A stretch of 42,986 nt of DNA from Reinekea forsetii (GTDB taxonomy: Bacteria; Pseudomonadota; Gammaproteobacteria; Pseudomonadales; Natronospirillaceae), in NCBI RefSeq assembly GCF_018860385.1, contig NZ_JAHKPH010000009.1, positions 1-42,986 on the forward strand, read 5' to 3'. This document shows positions 1 to 35,707 of this stretch, piece by piece (the stretch's first letter is position 1; every line of letters begins with the position of its first letter). The position numbers and the translations under genes are program-made. The notes beneath the pieces were generated by a model. That model was not told the DNA's origin and did not search any database. It saw only the letters and a program-made list of their open reading frames with translations.

Positions 1-13
1 ATATCAGCATTAT

Positions 14-89
14 GGGTGTGTAGCTCAGTTGGGAGAGCATCGCCCTTACAAGGCGAGGGTCAGCGGTTCGAACCCGTTCACACCCACCA
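14..89 (+). tRNA. tRNA-Val (anticodon TAC)
   Basis: A 76-nt cloverleaf with an encoded CCA end. The acceptor strands GGGTGTG and CACACCC pair fully, and the anticodon loop CTTACAA carries TAC, which reads GUA valine codons. Only 6 nt separate it from the following tRNA-Asp, so the two are probably cut from one transcript. The window begins just upstream, so its promoter is not visible and further tRNAs could precede it. Confidence 0.97.
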
Positions 90-95
90 TAATGC

Positions 96-172
96 GGAGC
101 GGTAGTTCAGTTGGTTAGAATACCGGCCTGTCACGCCGGGGGTCGCGAGTTCGAGTCTCGTCCGTTCCGCCA
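96..172 (+). tRNA. tRNA-Asp (anticodon GTC), copy 1
   Basis: A 77-nt cloverleaf with acceptor strands GGAGCGG and CCGTTCC, anticodon loop CTGTCAC (GTC), discriminator G and an encoded CCA. It is identical to the copy at 467-543. Its last 18 nt (GTCTCGTCCGTTCCGCCA) recur three more times in this region without the rest of the tRNA. Confidence 0.97.
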
Positions 173-266
173 CTTTTCCTAAGTATAAAAGGAGCGTTAA
201 GTTTGACGACTTAGCATCGCGACCAAAGCAGAGCTTCGGATCGCAAGCCGGAATGCCGGACCATCG
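155..266 (+). repeat. tRNA-Asp 3'-end repeat, unit 1
   Basis: The first of two 112-bp direct repeats. It begins with the last 18 nt of functional tRNA-Asp copy 1 and continues through a spacer with the TTAAG/CTTAG hairpin, a GCGACC-type stem and a CCGG-containing hairpin. Unit 2 starts at 267 with the same 18 nt. The two units differ at only a few positions, mainly around 235-240 and 252, which indicates recent duplication or gene conversion. Confidence 0.9.
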
Positions 267-378
267 GTCTCGTCCGTTCCGCCACTTTTCCTAAGTATAA
301 AAGGAGCGTTAAGTTTGACGACTTAGCATCGCGACCAAAGCAGAGCCTAGGGTCGCAAGCCGGGATGCCGGACCATCG
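267..378 (+). repeat. tRNA-Asp 3'-end repeat, unit 2 (tRNA remnant at 267-284)
   Basis: A 112-bp repeat that starts with a detached 18-nt tRNA-Asp 3' end: the end of the T-loop, the 3' strand of the T stem, the 3' acceptor strand, G and CCA. There is no tRNA body upstream of it. In this copy the GCGACC/GGTCGC stem is perfect (332-337 with 351-356). Confidence 0.9.
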
Positions 379-466
379 GTCTCGTCCGTTCCGCCACTTC
401 TCCTAAGTATAAAAGGAGCGTTAAGTTTGACGACTTAACAAGCCGAAAGGCTTTAAATTACTACCT
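379..466 (+). repeat. tRNA-Asp 3'-end repeat, unit 3 (shortened; remnant at 379-396)
   Basis: It begins with the same 18-nt tRNA remnant and shared spacer. After a perfect GTTAAG/CTTAAC hairpin it diverges into an AAGCC-GAAA-GGCTT hairpin (440-453) and then runs into the second full tRNA-Asp. The spacer changes exactly after the shared hairpin, so this looks like the join between the repeat array and the ordinary leader of tRNA-Asp copy 2. Confidence 0.85.
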
Positions 467-543
467 GGAGCGGTAGTTCAGTTGGTTAGAATACCGGCCT
501 GTCACGCCGGGGGTCGCGAGTTCGAGTCTCGTCCGTTCCGCCA
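467..543 (+). tRNA. tRNA-Asp (anticodon GTC), copy 2
   Basis: Identical over all 77 nt to the copy at 96-172, with anticodon GTC and an encoded CCA. It lies downstream of the repeat array and is itself followed by another repeat unit, so the array brackets this gene on both sides. Confidence 0.97.
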
Positions 544-653
544 CTTTTCCTAAGTATAAAAGGGATGTTAAGTTTGACGGCTTAACACTGCGACCAAAGC
601 AGAGCTTAGGATCGCAAGCGGGGGATGCCCGGTCGAAGCGTCGAACCGCATCG
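526..653 (+). repeat. tRNA-Asp 3'-end repeat, unit 4 (128 bp)
   Basis: It starts with the 3' end of tRNA-Asp copy 2 and carries the same spacer with about 16 extra bases before the next remnant. The first hairpin here is a perfect 7-bp TGTTAAG/CTTAACA stem. Relative to units 1 and 2, both arms have changed in a way that keeps pairing, which suggests the hairpin is selected. Confidence 0.85.
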
Positions 654-688
654 GTCTCGTCCGTTCCGCCACTTTTCCTAAGTATAAA
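654..688 (+). repeat. Terminal tRNA-Asp 3'-end remnant and spacer start
   Basis: The last 18-nt remnant of tRNA-Asp (654-671), followed by about 17 nt of the shared spacer, after which similarity stops. There is no tRNA body. It closes the array. Confidence 0.85.
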
Positions 689-996
689 GAGAATCCTCCG
701 TTCGAATTTATAAACAACCTCTTTGTCGTGATCGCCGTTCGAAATTTATTTTGTGTTCTAAGCCTTTTCTTTGCGGCATTTTGCATGTTCTTTTCTTTAT
801 CTATTTTCTCTATTCTAAGCCGATCATTTTCAACGCTTCTTCTCGTATAACCTAAATCAAAGCTTGCGCCCGAAATCGCTCTCAACTAAAGTAGTTTGTC
901 CAATTGAGTGCCTAAATGCGGTAAAATCGCCTAATTTCGCATTTTGAGCGCCGACAAGATCACACTTTCGATAAAAACTACAAAAGAAAGTAGGAA
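689..996. other. Intergenic region without a supported gene
   Basis: About 300 bases of AT-richer sequence between the tRNA array and the first protein gene. The only open frame, on the minus strand, runs into the tRNA repeats and looks accidental. A TAAAAT at 922-927 could be a -10 box for the next gene, but no convincing -35 element lies at the right distance. I see no terminator with a clear T-tract. Confidence 0.5.
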
Positions 997-2805
997 GTGT
1001 TGTGGAAGTCACAGTTAGAAAATGGATTTTATTCTACTATTCATAGACTAAATCTACCCTATGACCCGCTGTACGATAAGAGTGTTTTGAGGCTAAATAT
1101 GTCGTCTAGGAAGAACAAAGAACTTTTTGAAGCGATCTGCTTTTTTGGCAAAAAGGCCGTTATCAAAGAAATGCGTTATTCAGAATTTGAAGCCGTGCTC
1201 GATGGGGTTGTGGGTGTTTCTGAGTTAGCGAATAAAACCGTCAATGCCGCCTACTTGAAAATTAATCATTCTTTACAGGTTCATAGCATCGTTACCTTCA
1301 CAATTGAATTTAACGAGCGCGGCTTTGCAGATGAAGATTGGAACATACCTTTAAGGCACCTTGCAGATAATGCCGGACCTGGCCCAGACTTAGGTGCCGG
1401 GCCCATTCGTTTAGCTTGCCGAAGCCAATGTTCAGTTTCTTGGTATCAACGAGAGTTGTGGGAGCCAAGTCAAGACGGTGTGAATCATTTTGTTTTATTA
1501 AAAGACGCCGTGAAACGCAATAAGTTGGGCCTAATTGTTGATGACCTAGGCTTTGACGAAATACCTACTTTATCGCCGCCGCCAGCACCAGAAGTTCCGG
1601 TAATATCCGAAACAGTAGAAGTGCCAACGCTAACGGCTACGTCTGAAGAAGACATTAATGCTCGCTTAGAAGCTCAAGCCAAAGAATTTCAAAAGCAAGT
1701 CGATCAATTGGTTCAACGCCAAAAGCAAACTTTGCATGGCTTGGAAGAAAAATATAAAGACGAAATTGATCAAGTTAAACGAGCAATGCGTAATGAAACA
1801 CAAACGTATCGCCACCAAGCACAAGAATTAGAGCAACAAGCTAATCACAACAAAGTATTGCTTGAGAAAATTCAATCTCGAAATACTCGTTTAGAGCGCG
1901 ATCATATTCAGCTCGCCGACCAAGCAGAAACTCAAAAGGCTCAATATGACGAACTGAAAGATGAATATTTGGGGCTTTTGCGTAATCAACGTTCAAATGA
2001 GAACGAAGAATCTGAAAAGGTTGTTGAGTTAAAAGAGCAGCTCACCCTAAAAAGTGTGGAAATAGACGATCTGAAAGACGATGTCACCGCACAAAAAGCA
2101 ATGGTTTCAGAGCTTCAGGCTAAAATTGAAAGCTTTGAACAGCAAAATCAGCAAGTGTCTGAAAGCAGTTCTGAAGAAATTGAAAATTTACGTTCATTGT
2201 TAGCCGATAAGCAATCTGAAGCAGCTGCGCTTGCTGCTAAGGTTACGCAATTGGAAGCCAATGTAGAAAAGCTTACGGCTCAGCTAGAATCAAGCCAGTC
2301 GGAAGGCTCGGAACATGTTCAGCAATTGAAGAAATCAGAATCCGAAAACAAGAAGCTTCAAGAGCAATCGAAGTCGGCCGAATTCAAGTTACAAGAAGCG
2401 AATCGTGCGTTGGCAGCTCTCACCACTAAATACGAAGGCATTAAGCAAGAGCTTTCAGAGGTCGAAGCCGCAGAAGCATCTTCGTCTGATTTATTCGATA
2501 AAATGGAAAGCTTGGAGTTAGTCTTTGTTGCGTACCATGCTGGAGCAGGGCATATCAGCTTACCCGCACGGCAATTGGAAGACTATTTAGAAAAACCGCT
2601 CGTGTTTGCGGCCCAAAAATGCAGTGTAACCTTGGGTCAATATAAGAGCTGGTTGCTACATTACGATAATCCTGAGTGTGGTGAATGCCATGTCCCAGTA
2701 AAACGAATTGATGCACCTTCTGATTTTCAGGCTGGCGTTAATGACCGATGCACCAAACATCGTGTCGATAATGGCAATGTAGCGATGTTCCGTAAAACCA
2801 GTTAG
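997..2805 (+). CDS. Coiled-coil protein of unknown function with C-terminal Cys cluster
   Basis: I do not recognise a characterised family. The 602-residue protein has no signal peptide or membrane segment. Three parts can be seen: an N-terminal globular region (about 1-190), a Pro-rich linker (about 190-215), and a long Gln/Glu/Lys-rich coiled coil (about 220-510). It ends in a compact domain holding C561, C564, C585 and H588, a spacing that could bind zinc. The start is uncertain: GTG at 997, or TTG at 1000, which sits better behind AGGA at 992-995. The gene is 6 nt upstream of the PLP-enzyme gene, so the two are probably co-transcribed. The layout would suit a cytoplasmic scaffold or DNA-associated structural protein, but that is only inference. 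Confidence 0.85.
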   Translation: MLWKSQLENGFYSTIHRLNLPYDPLYDKSVLRLNMSSRKNKELFEAICFFGKKAVIKEMRYSEFEAVLDGVVGVSELANKTVNAAYLKINHSLQVHSIVTFTIEFNERGFADEDWNIPLRHLADNAGPGPDLGAGPIRLACRSQCSVSWYQRELWEPSQDGVNHFVLLKDAVKRNKLGLIVDDLGFDEIPTLSPPPAPEVPVISETVEVPTLTATSEEDINARLEAQAKEFQKQVDQLVQRQKQTLHGLEEKYKDEIDQVKRAMRNETQTYRHQAQELEQQANHNKVLLEKIQSRNTRLERDHIQLADQAETQKAQYDELKDEYLGLLRNQRSNENEESEKVVELKEQLTLKSVEIDDLKDDVTAQKAMVSELQAKIESFEQQNQQVSESSSEEIENLRSLLADKQSEAAALAAKVTQLEANVEKLTAQLESSQSEGSEHVQQLKKSESENKKLQEQSKSAEFKLQEANRALAALTTKYEGIKQELSEVEAAEASSSDLFDKMESLELVFVAYHAGAGHISLPARQLEDYLEKPLVFAAQKCSVTLGQYKSWLLHYDNPECGECHVPVKRIDAPSDFQAGVNDRCTKHRVDNGNVAMFRKTS

Positions 2806-8223: not shown

Positions 8224-9030
8224 ATGCTATACGAGTTTGGTCAACATACAATCGAATTGCCGTTTCGAAAAGGTTCTATTGACGAACAAGGTCGAATGTT
8301 ACTTTGGTTCGAAGGGCAATTGTTGGCTGATCAGAATAATGTAGTTTGGCCAGCATACGACCACCCCTTTAAAACGAGCTCTGAACTGTTTGTAGGGCTG
8401 TTAGATGGAAAGCCTTATTATTGCGCGAAAGTCTCAAGTCCTGGTAATGCCGAGCTTCTAGGGCTTAGGGATGTCGCTTCTAAGAGTGAAACGCTATTTT
8501 CACTCGCATCAAGAGCTAAAGGGTTGCTGGATTGGCAAAACCAGCACCAGTATTGTGGACAATGTGGGCAGCCGACTCAACAAATTGCCACTGAATTTGC
8601 TTTAACCTGTCAGCCTTGTCGTTTGCGATTTTATCCCAGAATATCGCCATGCATCATTGTATTAGTTACGCACGGTGATAAGGTGTTGTTGGCGCAAGGC
8701 GAGCGACACAAAAAGAGTGGTTGGTACAGCACGTTGGCGGGTTTTATCGAAACAGGCGAATCAGCCGAACAAGCCGTTGCAAGAGAAGTGTTTGAAGAAG
8801 TTGGCGTTCAGTTAAAAAATATTCGCTACATGAACAGCCAAACTTGGCCCTTCCCTAATCAGTTAATGTTGGGGTTCATGGCTGAATACGATGGCGGTGA
8901 CATCACCCCTGCGCCGGGAGAAATTGCCGATGCTCAATTCTTTGAATTAAACAATTTGCCAAAGCATCCACCAGGCATGACGATAGCGGGCTGGTTGATT
9001 CAAGCTTATAAAAAAGAGCGATTAGGCTAG
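8224..9030 (+). CDS. nudC: NADH pyrophosphatase / NAD-RNA decapping Nudix hydrolase NudC
   Basis: It hydrolyses NAD(H) to NMN(H) and AMP and removes NAD caps from RNA in family members. The zinc ribbon has C111, C114, C129 and C132. The Nudix box spans 173-195 (G-x5-E-x7-REVFEEVGV). The NudC-specific array is SQTWPFPNQ (205-213), close to the usual SQPWPFPxS. The length of 268 residues is normal (E. coli about 257). ATG at 8224 follows an AAAGGG ribosome site. It lies 14 nt after pat, linking protein acetylation and NAD metabolism in one transcript. Its stop overlaps the end of the small convergent gene at 9027-9146. Confidence 0.95.
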   Translation: MLYEFGQHTIELPFRKGSIDEQGRMLLWFEGQLLADQNNVVWPAYDHPFKTSSELFVGLLDGKPYYCAKVSSPGNAELLGLRDVASKSETLFSLASRAKGLLDWQNQHQYCGQCGQPTQQIATEFALTCQPCRLRFYPRISPCIIVLVTHGDKVLLAQGERHKKSGWYSTLAGFIETGESAEQAVAREVFEEVGVQLKNIRYMNSQTWPFPNQLMLGFMAEYDGGDITPAPGEIADAQFFELNNLPKHPPGMTIAGWLIQAYKKERLG

Positions 9031-9146
9031 CACTCAGGGTCGTTACGATGGCCTTCTTTACGCAGTATATAGAAAAAACCTACTAAAAAAGCGACCATTA
9101 AGCCAACGACACCAATGCCAGATAATACAATTATGTCTAAATACAT
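9027..9146 (-). CDS. Small single-pass membrane protein (39 aa), Fnr-box associated
   Basis: A 39-codon gene. It has an ATG at 9146 preceded by a strong ribosome site (GAGGTGAG, 5-6 nt spacing) and ends at 9027. The product opens with a short MYLD, has one hydrophobic helix (about 5-28) and a charged tail with the sequence RKEGHRNDPEC. I do not recognise a named family. Upstream at 9209-9222 is an Fnr/Anr-type palindrome at the distance expected for oxygen-dependent activation. The gene lies just after fnr and the cbb3 oxidase cluster, so a role as a small subunit or accessory of a respiratory complex is plausible, but not shown. Its 3' end overlaps the stop of nudC on the other strand. Confidence 0.75.
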   Translation of the reverse strand: MYLDIIVLSGIGVVGLMVAFLVGFFYILRKEGHRNDPEC

Positions 9147-9208
9147 AACTCACCTCTAAATGGTTTACATGTGTTGAAACCAGTGTATTAAAAGGTGAGT
9201 TAAGTGTG

Positions 9209-9269: not shown

Positions 9270-10007
9270 CTAAGCGGTACCCAGCTCCAATCGTTCACAT
9301 TCAGCCAACGATGCCATTTTAGTTAATTCATCGAAGTTTGTGATGATGATATCTTTCGCGCTGCCAGAATTGTCTAATAAACCTTGCTTTTGAAAACGAG
9401 TAAACACACGGCTGACCGTTTCTACCGCTAATCCTAAATAATTCGCAATGTCAGCTCGGGACATCGTCAGGCGGAAAGACGTTCCAGAAAAACCGCGTCG
9501 TTTAAATCTAGCGGCTAAATTAACCAAAAAGGAGGCGATACGCTCTTCTGCGCTTTTCTTGCTTAACAGCAGCATCATCTTTTGCTCATCTCTGAGTTCT
9601 TTGCCCATCAGGCGCATTAACTGGCGACGAAGCTCTGGCATTTTACCGGCCAAGTCATCGAGCTTTTCGATCGGTATTTCACAGACATTGGTGGTTTCTA
9701 GTGCTTTGGCAGACGAAGGGTATGTCACGGAATCGTAGCTCTCTAAACCCACCAACTCACTGGCCAGATGAAACCCGGTAATCTGCTCTTCGCCATCATT
9801 AGTTAGCGAATAGGTTTTAAGGGTTCCGGTTCTAACGGCGTATATGGCTTTAAATTCATCGCCCTGATAATACAAGTGTTCGCCTTTTTTAATAGGGCGA
9901 CCACGGTTTATGATGCCATCAAGCGTATCCATGTCTTCAACGTTTAAAGCCAGTGGTAAACACAGGGGATGTAAGCTGCAATTTTTGCAGGCCGTTGACA
10001 AAGACAT
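9270..10007 (-). CDS. fnr: Fnr/Anr oxygen-sensing transcription regulator
   Basis: A CRP/FNR-family regulator that binds DNA as a dimer when its oxygen-labile [4Fe-4S] cluster is intact. The four ligand cysteines are C7, C10, C16 and C109, with the spacing of FNR/Anr but a shorter N-terminus than E. coli FNR. The cyclic-nucleotide-like beta barrel covers about 30-130, the dimer helix about 130-160, and the helix-turn-helix 182-203. The recognition helix reads ETVSR (196-200), identical to the FNR specificity residues, so its sites should be TTGAT-N4-ATCAA. It lies downstream of ttcA and the cbb3 cluster on the same strand; such linkage is common in pseudomonads and relatives. The name anr would be equally suitable. 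Confidence 0.95.
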
Positions 10008-33535: not shown

Positions 33536-34213
33536 ATGAAGCCGAAAGCCGTCGTACTTTTAAGTGGTGGACTCGATTCAACAACAGTCATTGCAAAGGC
33601 GCAAGCCGATGGTTATGACGTTTATGCGTTAAGTTTTGATTATGGCCAGCGCCATGATTCTGAATTAGAGGCGGCTAGACGAGTCGCACAGCAGTTTTCG
33701 GTGATAGAGCATAAAATTGTACCGATGAACCTGCGCAGCATTGGCGGGTCGGCGTTAACGGATGATTCAATAGATGTGCCTACTGAAGAGTCTGAAGGAA
33801 TCCCTTCTACCTACGTGCCGGCCCGTAATACAGTGTTTTTGTCGGTGGCTTTAGGGTGGGCCGAGGTGATCAATGCAGACGCAATTTGCATTGGTGTTAG
33901 CGCAGTAGATTACTCTGGCTACCCAGATTGTCGTCCAGAATACATCGCAGCGTTTGAAACGCTGGCTAATTTAGCGACCAAGCGAGGTGTTGAAGGGCAC
34001 CCTATTAAGATTGTGACGCCCTTAATTGACCTAAGCAAAGCACAAACCATTGAACTTGGGCACAAGCTGGGTGTCGATTATTCGTTGACAGTTAGTTGCT
34101 ATCAAGCCAATGATGCAGGTGAAGCCTGTGGTCAATGCGACTCTTGCCGCTTAAGAATTAAAGGTTTTAGCGATGCAGGTGTGCCTGATCAAACTCGTTA
34201 TGTGAAGGCTTAA
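33536..34213 (+). CDS. queC: 7-cyano-7-deazaguanine synthase QueC
   Basis: It converts 7-carboxy-7-deazaguanine to preQ0 in queuosine synthesis, using ATP and ammonia. The PP-loop SGGLDS is at 10-15, and the zinc site is C188, C198, C201, C204, the family C-x9-C-x2-C-x2-C pattern. The length of 225 residues is normal. In many gammaproteobacteria queE sits between cpoB and queC; it is missing here and must lie elsewhere if the pathway is complete. Confidence 0.97.
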
Positions 34214-34343: not shown

Positions 34344-34419
34344 GGGTCGTTAGCTCAGTTGGTAGAGCAGTTGGCTTTTAACCAATTGGTCGTGCGTTCG
34401 AGTCGCACACGACCCACCA
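34344..34419 (+). tRNA. tRNA-Lys (anticodon TTT), copy 1
   Basis: A 76-nt cloverleaf with acceptor strands GGGTCGT/ACGACCC, anticodon loop CTTTTAA (TTT) and an encoded CCA. It is identical to the copy at 34495-34570, with a 75-nt spacer between. Confidence 0.97.
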
Positions 34420-34494
34420 CTTAAGAAATTGAATGTAAGTGGTTGATTTTACTTGAAATTGTGGATTTCGCTTTGTAAAATACCGACAAGATTA

Positions 34495-34570
34495 GGGTCG
34501 TTAGCTCAGTTGGTAGAGCAGTTGGCTTTTAACCAATTGGTCGTGCGTTCGAGTCGCACACGACCCACCA
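34495..34570 (+). tRNA. tRNA-Lys (anticodon TTT), copy 2
   Basis: Identical to copy 1 over 76 nt, with an encoded CCA. It shares the promoter and ends at the terminator 12 nt further on. Confidence 0.97.
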
Positions 34571-34654: not shown

Positions 34655-35707
34655 ATGAAAACTCAAAACCAGTTGTCCGATCTCATCGTTAATTTTGATG
34701 TTCCCGTTGCTCAGCGCACGTCGCAACTTAGCCAGCAAGAAGTTCAACAGTTGAACGACGAGATCATAGAGCGTTTAAAAGAGCAAAATGCCGTGCTCGT
34801 AGCGCACTACTATACGGATCCTTTGGTTCAGGCATTGGCCGAGAAATCAGGTGGCTTTATCGGTGATTCACTTGAAATGGCGCGATATGGTCGGGACGTA
34901 GAGGCTGACACGGTCATCGTCGCTGGCGTCAAGTTCATGGGTGAAACCTCAAAAATACTGAGCCCTAACAAACGCATACTCATGCCAACGTTAGAGGCCA
35001 CCTGCTCACTTGACCTAGGCTGCCCTATCGATGAGTTTGAGGCGTTTTGTGATGCCCACCCAGACCGAACTGTGGTGGTGTATGCCAATACCTCTGCGGC
35101 CGTTAAGGCGCGTGCTGATTGGGTCGTTACTTCGAGCGTTGCATTGGATATTGTCGATCACTTAGATCGCCAAGGTGAAAAGATTCTTTGGGCTCCAGAT
35201 CAGCATCTGGGCGGTTATGTTCAGAAACAAACCGGCGCAGATATGCTGCTTTGGAATGGTAGCTGTATTGTGCATGAAGAATTTAAAGCGAAAGGCTTAT
35301 TGGATATGAAAGCGATGTATCCCGATGCGGCCGTACTCGTGCACCCTGAATCACCCGATTCTGTCATAGAGATTGCTGATGTCGTTGGTTCTACTACGCA
35401 GCTACTTGAAGCCTCAGCAACGATGCCAAACCCTCAATTTATTGTCGCTACCGATCGCGGTATTTTTTATAAAATGCAGCAGCGGTCGCCACAGAAATCA
35501 TTTATTGAAGCGCCTACGGGTGGTTCAGGTGCGCAATGTCGCAGTTGTGCCCACTGCCCATGGATGGCCATGAATGACTTAGAGCGTATCAAGCAAGAAC
35601 TCATCGCGCCTAAGAATGAAGTGTTTGTCGATGATACGTTAATAGAGAAGGCGGTGATTCCGTTGAATCGAATGCTCGATTTTGCCAGTCAGCGTAAGCG
35701 CTCATAA
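34655..35707 (+). CDS. nadA: Quinolinate synthase NadA
   Basis: An Fe-S enzyme that condenses iminoaspartate with dihydroxyacetone phosphate in NAD synthesis. The [4Fe-4S] ligands are C117, C204 and C301, matching the E. coli C113/C200/C297 spacing; the last lies in the [13 protein letters not shown] motif. HYYTDPLVQ near 51 binds substrate. The length of 350 residues is normal. Its 3' end overlaps the convergent bepA by 19 nt. Confidence 0.97.

What the first reader, a model, noticed from the sequence alone, without database searches (positions are those of the whole stretch)
96..688. tRNA-Asp genes embedded in repeats that each carry a detached tRNA 3' end
Seen: the last 18 nt of tRNA-Asp (GTCTCGTCCGTTCCGCCA) occur five times, twice in complete tRNAs and three times alone (267-284, 379-396, 654-671), with periods of 112, 112 and 128 bp. 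Known: the E. coli tyrT operon has 178-bp repeats carrying the last 19 nt of tRNA-Tyr and yields the rtT RNA; tRNA trailer fragments can also sponge small RNAs. Inferred: a parallel architecture has arisen on a different tRNA in another lineage. The released spacer RNAs could be processed by the tRNA end-maturation enzymes and act as small RNAs or decoys.
Basis: partly seen in the sequence, partly recalled or inferred. Interest (0 to 1): 0.7.

Follow-up and report, generated by a model that had tools for sequence, protein, structure and literature searches.

The report
Repeated tRNA-Asp tails with replaced T-loop
Behind the tRNA-Asp genes of a marine Reinekea bacterium lie short tandem repeats that each end in a copy of the tRNA's tail and carry a hairpin where the tRNA's T-loop should be; related bacteria have similar repeats behind several other tRNA genes and E. 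coli has the same layout with another hairpin core (the known rtT RNA), so it looks like a little-studied class of tRNA by-product whose function still has to be tested.

Summary
Confirmed: five exact copies of the last 18 nt of tRNA-Asp, three outside tRNA genes. Each such unit keeps the tRNA's T stem but replaces the T loop by a hairpin ("HP4"). In 35 selected units attached to tRNA-Asp, Gly, Met, Pro and Leu, HP4 forms in 97.8% of cells, and one pair occurs as all four Watson-Crick types. Detached 3' ends are not peculiar to Asp: around 193 tRNA genes of four relatives I found 43, all downstream of the tRNA they match. E. coli K-12 shows the same anatomy behind tRNA-Tyr, Lys and Arg with a different core, Rfam RtT, which the window does not match. 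A 128-bp unit flanked by 35-bp repeats is present here and absent in a same-species genome, so units come and go. I read the array as an rtT-type tRNA-trailer repeat with its own core: co-transcribed and probably cut out during tRNA maturation (inferred), with structural selection on the core (likely, not proved). A role as small RNA or decoy is untested; a passive recombination by-product is a serious rival. CCA is lost in 4 of 17 Reinekea units, a weak argument against a role that needs it.

The parts
14..89 (+). tRNA-Val(tac), first gene of the Val-Asp repeat
   Evidence: ARAGORN and Rfam
96..172 (+). tRNA-Asp(gtc), complete
   Evidence: ARAGORN and Rfam
173..284 (+). unit 1 (112 nt): trailer hairpin HP1 176-194, HP2 196-215, HP3 219-244, T-stem 5' strand 243-247, HP4 248-259 in place of the T loop, detached tRNA-Asp 3' end 267-284
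285..396 (+). unit 2 (112 nt): same layout, HP4 360-371, detached 3' end 379-396
397..466 (+). trailer without a detached end (HP1- and HP2-type letters) leading into the next tRNA-Asp
   Evidence: sequence and repeat family D2
467..543 (+). tRNA-Asp(gtc), second complete copy
   Evidence: ARAGORN and Rfam
544..671 (+). unit 3 (128 nt), enlarged core variant, detached 3' end 654-671; flanked by 35-bp exact direct repeats (526-560 and 654-688); absent in same-species genome G038
672..690 (+). last trailer copy (HP1-type start) that ends the array

Best explanation
The array is an rtT-type tRNA-trailer repeat with a core of its own. SHOWN from sequence: each unit is a 3' part of tRNA-Asp (variable region to CCA) in which the T loop is replaced by a short hairpin that covaries among relatives. 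Units follow a complete tRNA-Asp or another unit, and each detached end is followed by the same trailer as the complete gene. Relatives carry units of this kind behind other tRNAs too. One unit is present or absent between two genomes of one species, with 35-bp repeats at its ends. INFERRED: units are transcribed with the Val-Asp operon, because no terminator-like site lies in the array and a complete tRNA-Asp lies behind two units. INFERRED: they are released as roughly 112-128 nt RNAs by the nucleases that cut the tRNAs, as described for E. coli rtT. INFERRED: selection keeps the structured core, either because the excised RNA does something (small RNA, or decoy for an enzyme that grips the T arm) or because the hairpin insulates the surplus 3' strand so that it cannot mispair with real tRNAs. 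Recombination with the complete gene adds, removes and homogenises units.
For: Anatomy. HP4 in 35 distinct units of five tRNA types: 97.8% of 136 cells paired, pair 11-20 is CG 15, UA 15, GC 2, AU 1; 0 of 500 shuffles reach the covariation score. T stem 89.5% of 171 cells paired in the same units. HP1 (5 of 5 pairs) and HP2 (3 of 6) have changes on both sides among 17 Reinekea units. HP4 core and tRNA end are much better conserved between Reinekea species than HP1-HP3: 0.85 and 0.73 against 0.55-0.66; without G005, whose end is out of register, 0.94 and 0.90 against 0.52-0.64. Detached 3' ends: 43 downstream, 0 upstream around 193 tRNA genes of four genomes, reversed-letter control 0; own genome 7, all exact and downstream, from 30 of 45 tRNA loci. 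The detached end follows the host's own tRNA: CCGTTCC in the window's family, CCAGTCC in family f38. Same anatomy in E. coli K-12 on Tyr, Lys and Arg, where Rfam RtT matches Tyr and Lys units and rttR is an annotated ncRNA. RtT RNAs gave Northern signals in Actinobacillus (passage of PMC4986893). No terminator-like and no +-strand promoter-like site in window 1-1100. Presence/absence of the 128-bp unit.
Against: No RNA data exist here for any Reinekea or relative unit. The 35 units were picked by a pattern that asks for a C-G-rich hairpin and by hand; units with other T-loop hairpins were left out, so the counts describe HP4 units only. In one search only 2 of 4 pairs vary on both sides, and the two measures that count pairs or types do not exceed the shuffles (208 and 358 of 500). 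The lead of the core over the tRNA end in conservation is small once G005 is left out. In some loci (Leu, Ser, one Gly locus of relatives, and tRNA-Gly of the own genome) a terminator-like hairpin with a T run, seen by eye, lies between the tRNA and the unit, so those units may be transcribed little. 9 of 22 family genomes gave no core hit, though several of their arrays are cut by contig ends. HP3 is only moderately supported: 9 of 33 units p<0.05. The downstream-only placement of 3' parts is also what plain tandem duplication gives.
Confidence: 0.52

Rival explanations
1. Passive by-product. Tandem duplications with a breakpoint inside the tRNA leave 3' parts downstream (and 5' parts upstream); recombination between the repeats homogenises them; the hairpins are junction debris or mutational quasi-palindromes, and nothing is selected for.
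For: The asymmetry fits: with up to 2 mismatches 43 detached 3' ends downstream and 0 upstream, 4 detached 5' ends upstream and 0 downstream (one 5' end lies downstream at 3 mismatches, L125). Copy number differs within one species. Exact 102-bp and nearly exact 99-bp arrays look like recent expansions. Met units of G010 and the Arg unit of G094 are plainly degenerate tRNA copies. Ends decay in G004, G005 and R. blandensis.
Against: One hairpin consensus recurs behind five tRNA types in two families, with all four Watson-Crick types at one pair. E. coli has a different but equally recurrent core behind three tRNA types.
Confidence: 0.33
2. A tiny mobile hairpin that inserts site-specifically at about position 54 of T loops (target TTCRA) and spread over tRNA genes; the detached ends are its duplicated targets.
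For: By eye the insert is about 15-17 nt at the same place in tRNA-Asp, Gly, Pro and Leu parts, with one consensus.
Against: Not seen dispersed: of 17 pattern matches in 6 genomes 11 are at tRNA loci; 6 are not known to be (5 with three mismatches, one of them read and coding; one with two mismatches in G193 not looked at); the backward control gave 3. The window's unit matched only array copies in its own genome. No complete tRNA with the insert was seen. No transposase was looked for.
Confidence: 0.1
3. Scars of integrative elements (displaced attB halves left behind after decay of an island), since integrases often use tRNA 3' ends.
For: Displaced 3' ends that start in the T loop are what an island with a T-loop crossover leaves (recalled knowledge).
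Against: Regular tandem units, a common core for many tRNAs, and 35-bp unit-to-unit identity that includes the host trailer are not expected. Of 9 window proteins tested, including the one next to the array, none matched an integrase family.
Confidence: 0.04
4. Assembly artefact.
For: The window begins at a contig end inside the array.
Against: Same kind of units on long contigs of G038, G003, G004 and G008.
Confidence: 0.01

Closest known systems
RtT RNA (Rfam RF00391; E. coli tyrT operon, annotated ncRNA rttR)
   Same: Behind a complete tRNA; tandem in tyrT; ends in the cognate tRNA 3' end; hairpins where the T loop should be; same kind of unit behind several tRNA types (Tyr, Lys, Arg in E. 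coli)
   Different: The core is unrelated in sequence and size: one 4-bp hairpin instead of several hairpins; no RtT match in the window or own genome
3'ETS-leuZ (E. coli tRNA trailer RNA; sponge role recalled; annotated)
   Same: An RNA made from a tRNA operon trailer
   Different: No detached tRNA 3' end was found there
REP/BIME palindromes
   Same: Short GC-rich hairpins; RtT-like elements of enterobacteria were linked to BIMEs (PMC2965389, section 14)
   Different: The HP4 core was found at tRNA loci and not seen dispersed
Degenerate tandem tRNA copies (pseudo-tRNAs)
   Same: Met units of G010 and the Arg unit of G094 are such copies, changed at the anticodon loop
   Different: Most Asp, Gly, Pro and Leu units tested show no tRNA similarity upstream of the variable region

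Membership tests
RtT (Rfam RF00391) | Match to the family covariance model (gathering score 45 bits) | tested here: not met
   Window 1-800 at E<=5: only tRNAs; own genome and 7 other genomes of its family listed without a match (strict filters); L041, L048, L118, L119, L125, L127, L130-L132 and L128, L129, L140, L156, L163, L184 without a match; E. coli controls match
RtT-type tRNA-trailer repeat (architecture, not sequence) | Tandem unit behind a complete tRNA that ends in that tRNA's 3' end | tested here: met
RtT-type tRNA-trailer repeat (architecture, not sequence) | T stem kept, T loop replaced by hairpin(s) | tested here: met
   in window unit 1 four of five T-stem pairs remain (GCAAG/CTCGT, read)
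RtT-type tRNA-trailer repeat (architecture, not sequence) | A stable RNA is released during tRNA processing | not testable with these tools
   No expression data here; reported for RtT by others (PMC4986893, passages)
RtT (E. coli) | Small protein tpr encoded in the unit | not tested
   tpr is annotated in E. coli; a 13-codon ATG frame can be read over window 253-294, but its ATG depends on the HP4 loop letters, which differ in many relatives
REP/BIME element | Dispersed over the genome between unrelated genes | tested here: not met
   Pattern search in 6 genomes: 11 of 17 matches at tRNA loci, the rest near the control level; unit DNA in the own genome only in the array
CsrA/RsmA sponge RNA | Several conserved GGA motifs | tested here: not met
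   GGA count per unit 1 to 4 in 17 Reinekea units; 4 only in the window's species

The most novel reading that the evidence does not exclude
Gammaproteobacteria carry a general class of tRNA-operon RNAs: T-arm mimics in which the T loop is replaced by a lineage-specific hairpin core while the cognate tRNA's 3' strand and CCA are kept. At least two unrelated cores (RtT and the HP4 core described here) have converged on the same position in many tRNA types, because the excised RNA does a common job, such as a decoy for enzymes that grip the T arm or buffering of tRNA 3' processing.
Probability: 0.25. Interest if true: 0.8.

Novelty: new variant of a known kind. Interest (0 to 1): 0.55.

Why it matters
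To my knowledge rtT has mostly been treated as an oddity of E. coli tRNA operons. The genomes examined here indicate that the layout recurs in this order, is attached to several tRNA types, exists with at least two unrelated cores, and turns over within a species. That makes an old question (does the by-product RNA of a tRNA operon do anything?) testable by comparison: one can ask which part is kept when units are gained, lost and decay. It also warns annotators that tRNA operons can hold partial tRNAs that break assemblies.

Tried and rejected
Acceptor-like pairing in the unit (GGAGCG or GGAATG with CGTTCC): possible in the window's units, but not kept in family f38, where the end is CCAGTCC, nor in several Reinekea units; rejected as a conserved feature (by eye).

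HP3 test: my cut removed the partner strand of short-loop hairpins (3 of 33 significant); repeated as local folding (9 of 33 with p<0.05, 28 of 33 with negative z, mean z -1.23). HP3 is moderately supported.

Pseudo-tRNA origin of whole units: upstream parts of 26 units were compared with their tRNA; 6 of 26 at p<0.05, one more at 0.050. It holds for two Met units of G010 and the Arg unit of G094; a Met unit of G094 gave 0.31; 12 of 14 Asp units gave p above 0.05.

Conservation of the core against the tRNA end: my first reading made the core stand out; leaving out G005, whose end is out of register in the alignment, narrows it to 0.94 against 0.90.

CsrA/RsmA sponge, conserved small ORF, dispersed REP: see the membership test. 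R1 hits dropped from counts: G002, G006 and G007 (only tRNA-Asp itself, 33-35 bits); G002 and G249 (contig end, no tRNA found there). Left out of the alignment: units with other T-loop hairpins or decayed ends, among them L043, L044, L129, L045 (third), L123 (second) and window 544-671. Left out: window 544-671 and several G004 units. Controls: opposite strand gave 3 matches, two overlapping tRNA-Glu genes and one outside; 3' ends of random other tRNAs with 3 mismatches gave 10 hits in 1075 tests, 8 of them the same tRNA type from the other genome.

On print: the listings (open-licence library only) showed no title on detached tRNA-Asp ends or this hairpin core; the original rtT paper is not held, so I could not check how far it describes other operons. 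[quoted passage not shown]

Full report
The observation. Five exact copies of the last 18 nt of tRNA-Asp are present, three outside tRNA genes (shuffles expect 0.01). Two complete tRNA-Asp and one tRNA-Val frame them. Identity continues past CCA into the trailer (62-nt family D2). The window starts at a contig end and contig C21 of the same genome ends in the same kind of array. A same-species genome (G038) has the array on one contig: Val-Asp, one unit with a detached end, a further trailer without one, then Val-Asp, Val-Asp, Asp.

What the unit is. Upstream of the detached end lie letters like GGTCGCG, which are the variable region and T-stem 5' strand of tRNA-Asp, then a hairpin, then the T-loop remnant TCG and the T-stem 3' strand. 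The unit is therefore a 3' part of the tRNA with a hairpin in place of the T loop. In window unit 1 the T stem keeps four of five pairs (read). Each detached end in the window is followed by the same trailer as a real tRNA-Asp, with a covarying hairpin (HP1; five of five pairs with changes on both sides) whose loop reads AAGTMTAAA in 16 of 17 Reinekea units.

Relatives. Named neighbours show the genus is Reinekea (R. blandensis, R. marinisedimentorum, Reinekea sp. G2M2-21). A covariance model of the core (R1) finds units in 13 of 22 family genomes (tRNA-only hits removed) and gives hits in 9 of 44 genomes of a second family, f38 (strict filters). I read the loci behind these nine: units stand behind tRNA-Asp in five genomes (G058, G094, G193, G411, G419), behind tRNA-Gly in two (G404, G417), behind both in G371, and in G122 a unit with a tRNA-Gly end lies next to a contig end without its tRNA. 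In f38 the detached Asp end reads CCAGTCC like f38's own tRNA-Asp, not CCGTTCC, so it follows the host gene.

Not only tRNA-Asp. Around the 193 tRNA genes of four genomes (G004, G008, G010, G094), 18-nt ends with up to two mismatches within 800 nt (less where the fetched stretch ends) gave 43 detached 3' ends downstream and none upstream, 4 detached 5' ends upstream and none downstream, and none for reversed letters. With three mismatches one 5' end lies downstream (L125). Tandem arrays stand behind tRNA-Met (six further 3' ends at 102-bp steps, G004), tRNA-Pro (seven at 99-bp steps, G008) and tRNA-Leu (three, G008). In the own genome 30 of 45 tRNA loci were available (36 distinct tRNA contexts): 7 detached 3' ends, all exact and downstream, at tRNA-Asp (3), Val(gac), Gly(gcc) and Arg(tcg) (2). 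Not all of these have the HP4 hairpin: the Ser, Ala, Arg and Val units carry other hairpins, and Met units of G010 and the Arg unit of G094 are degenerate tRNA copies.

The core hairpin. In 35 distinct HP4 units from tRNA-Asp, Gly, Met, Pro and Leu the four pairs form in 97.8% of 136 cells. One pair occurs as CG, UA, GC and AU, and no shuffle reaches the covariation score. Cautions: related sequences inflate such counts, as the tool warns; the units were picked by a pattern and by hand; only two of four pairs vary on both sides, and the measures that count pairs or types do not exceed the shuffles. Sliding the partner by one to three columns drops pairing to 3-46%. The T stem pairs in 89.5% of 171 cells (slid by three columns 69.6%). 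Between Reinekea species, core and tRNA end are far better conserved than the other hairpins. 4 of 17 units have lost CCA and 10 of 17 ends differ from the tRNA.

E. coli. In MG1655 the tyrT repeat has the same anatomy: AAGGTTCGA, hairpins, then AATCCTTCCCCCACCACCA. Of 47 tRNAs in 11 loci examined, 11 detached 3' ends lie downstream of tRNA-Tyr (2), Lys (6) and Arg (3), none at the other tRNAs of these loci, with similar cores; Rfam RtT matches Tyr and Lys units above its cut-off and one Arg unit weakly. RtT also occurs in this order: 30 of 194 genomes at E<=0.001, 14 over the cut-off, none in the own genome. The four RtT loci I read lie beside tRNA-Arg, Lys, Tyr and Ser. The window's unit does not match RtT. 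So two unrelated cores occupy the same place.

Turnover. The window's last unit (544-671) is flanked by 35-bp exact repeats and is missing in G038, where the trailer follows the last tRNA-Asp directly. This is what recombination between the repeats would give.

Mechanism. No terminator-like site and no +-strand promoter-like site lies in window 1-1100, and a complete tRNA-Asp follows two units, so the units should be transcribed (inferred). Excision by tRNA-processing nucleases is inferred from E. coli rtT (recalled; PMC4986893 and PMC2965389, passages and one section). What the RNA does is unknown. I think structural selection on the core is likely; whether it serves a regulatory RNA or only keeps surplus tRNA strands harmless cannot be told from sequence. 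The passive model explains placement and turnover as well as mine does; it does not readily explain one covarying hairpin behind five tRNA types.

Verdict. Real, recurrent in relatives, and an unlisted core within a known kind of element (rtT-type tRNA-trailer repeat). Interest 0.55.

Noticed in passing
window 9007-9179 (-): Rfam PhrS small RNA, 38.6 bits against a gathering score of 37, between a NudC-like NUDIX gene (8224-9030 +) and a Crp/Fnr-type regulator gene (9270-10007 -).
   Followed up: no
window 34344-34570: Two tRNA-Lys genes between queC (33536-34213) and nadA (34655-35707). E. coli's tRNA-Lys array with RtT units also lies upstream of nadA, yet here the scan found no detached ends.
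   Followed up: partly
L124-L127, L133 (genomes G008, G015): Incomplete tRNA-Gly copies, most of them upstream of the real tRNA-Gly, with an 8-nt anticodon loop (TTGACCGA in most) and an insert in the variable region; they lack the 3' acceptor strand or have a decayed one.
   Followed up: partly
L039, L043, L056: 5' parts (or a whole degenerate copy) of tRNA-Val with a hairpin inserted in the D loop, near complete tRNAs.
   Followed up: no
L093 (genome G015): No tRNA-Asp match in this assembly; instead a unit is joined to a leader like the one that precedes tRNA-Val in relatives, probably a collapsed or deleted array.
   Followed up: no
L190, L206 (G010) and L224 (G094): A second class of detached 3' parts, behind tRNA-Met and Arg: degenerate tRNA copies changed at the anticodon loop, two of the three at near tRNA-length period (83 and 84 bp).
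   Followed up: partly
window 997-2805 (+): 602-codon ORF next to the array without a Pfam match; a relative lies next to the array in three named Reinekea genomes.
   Followed up: no
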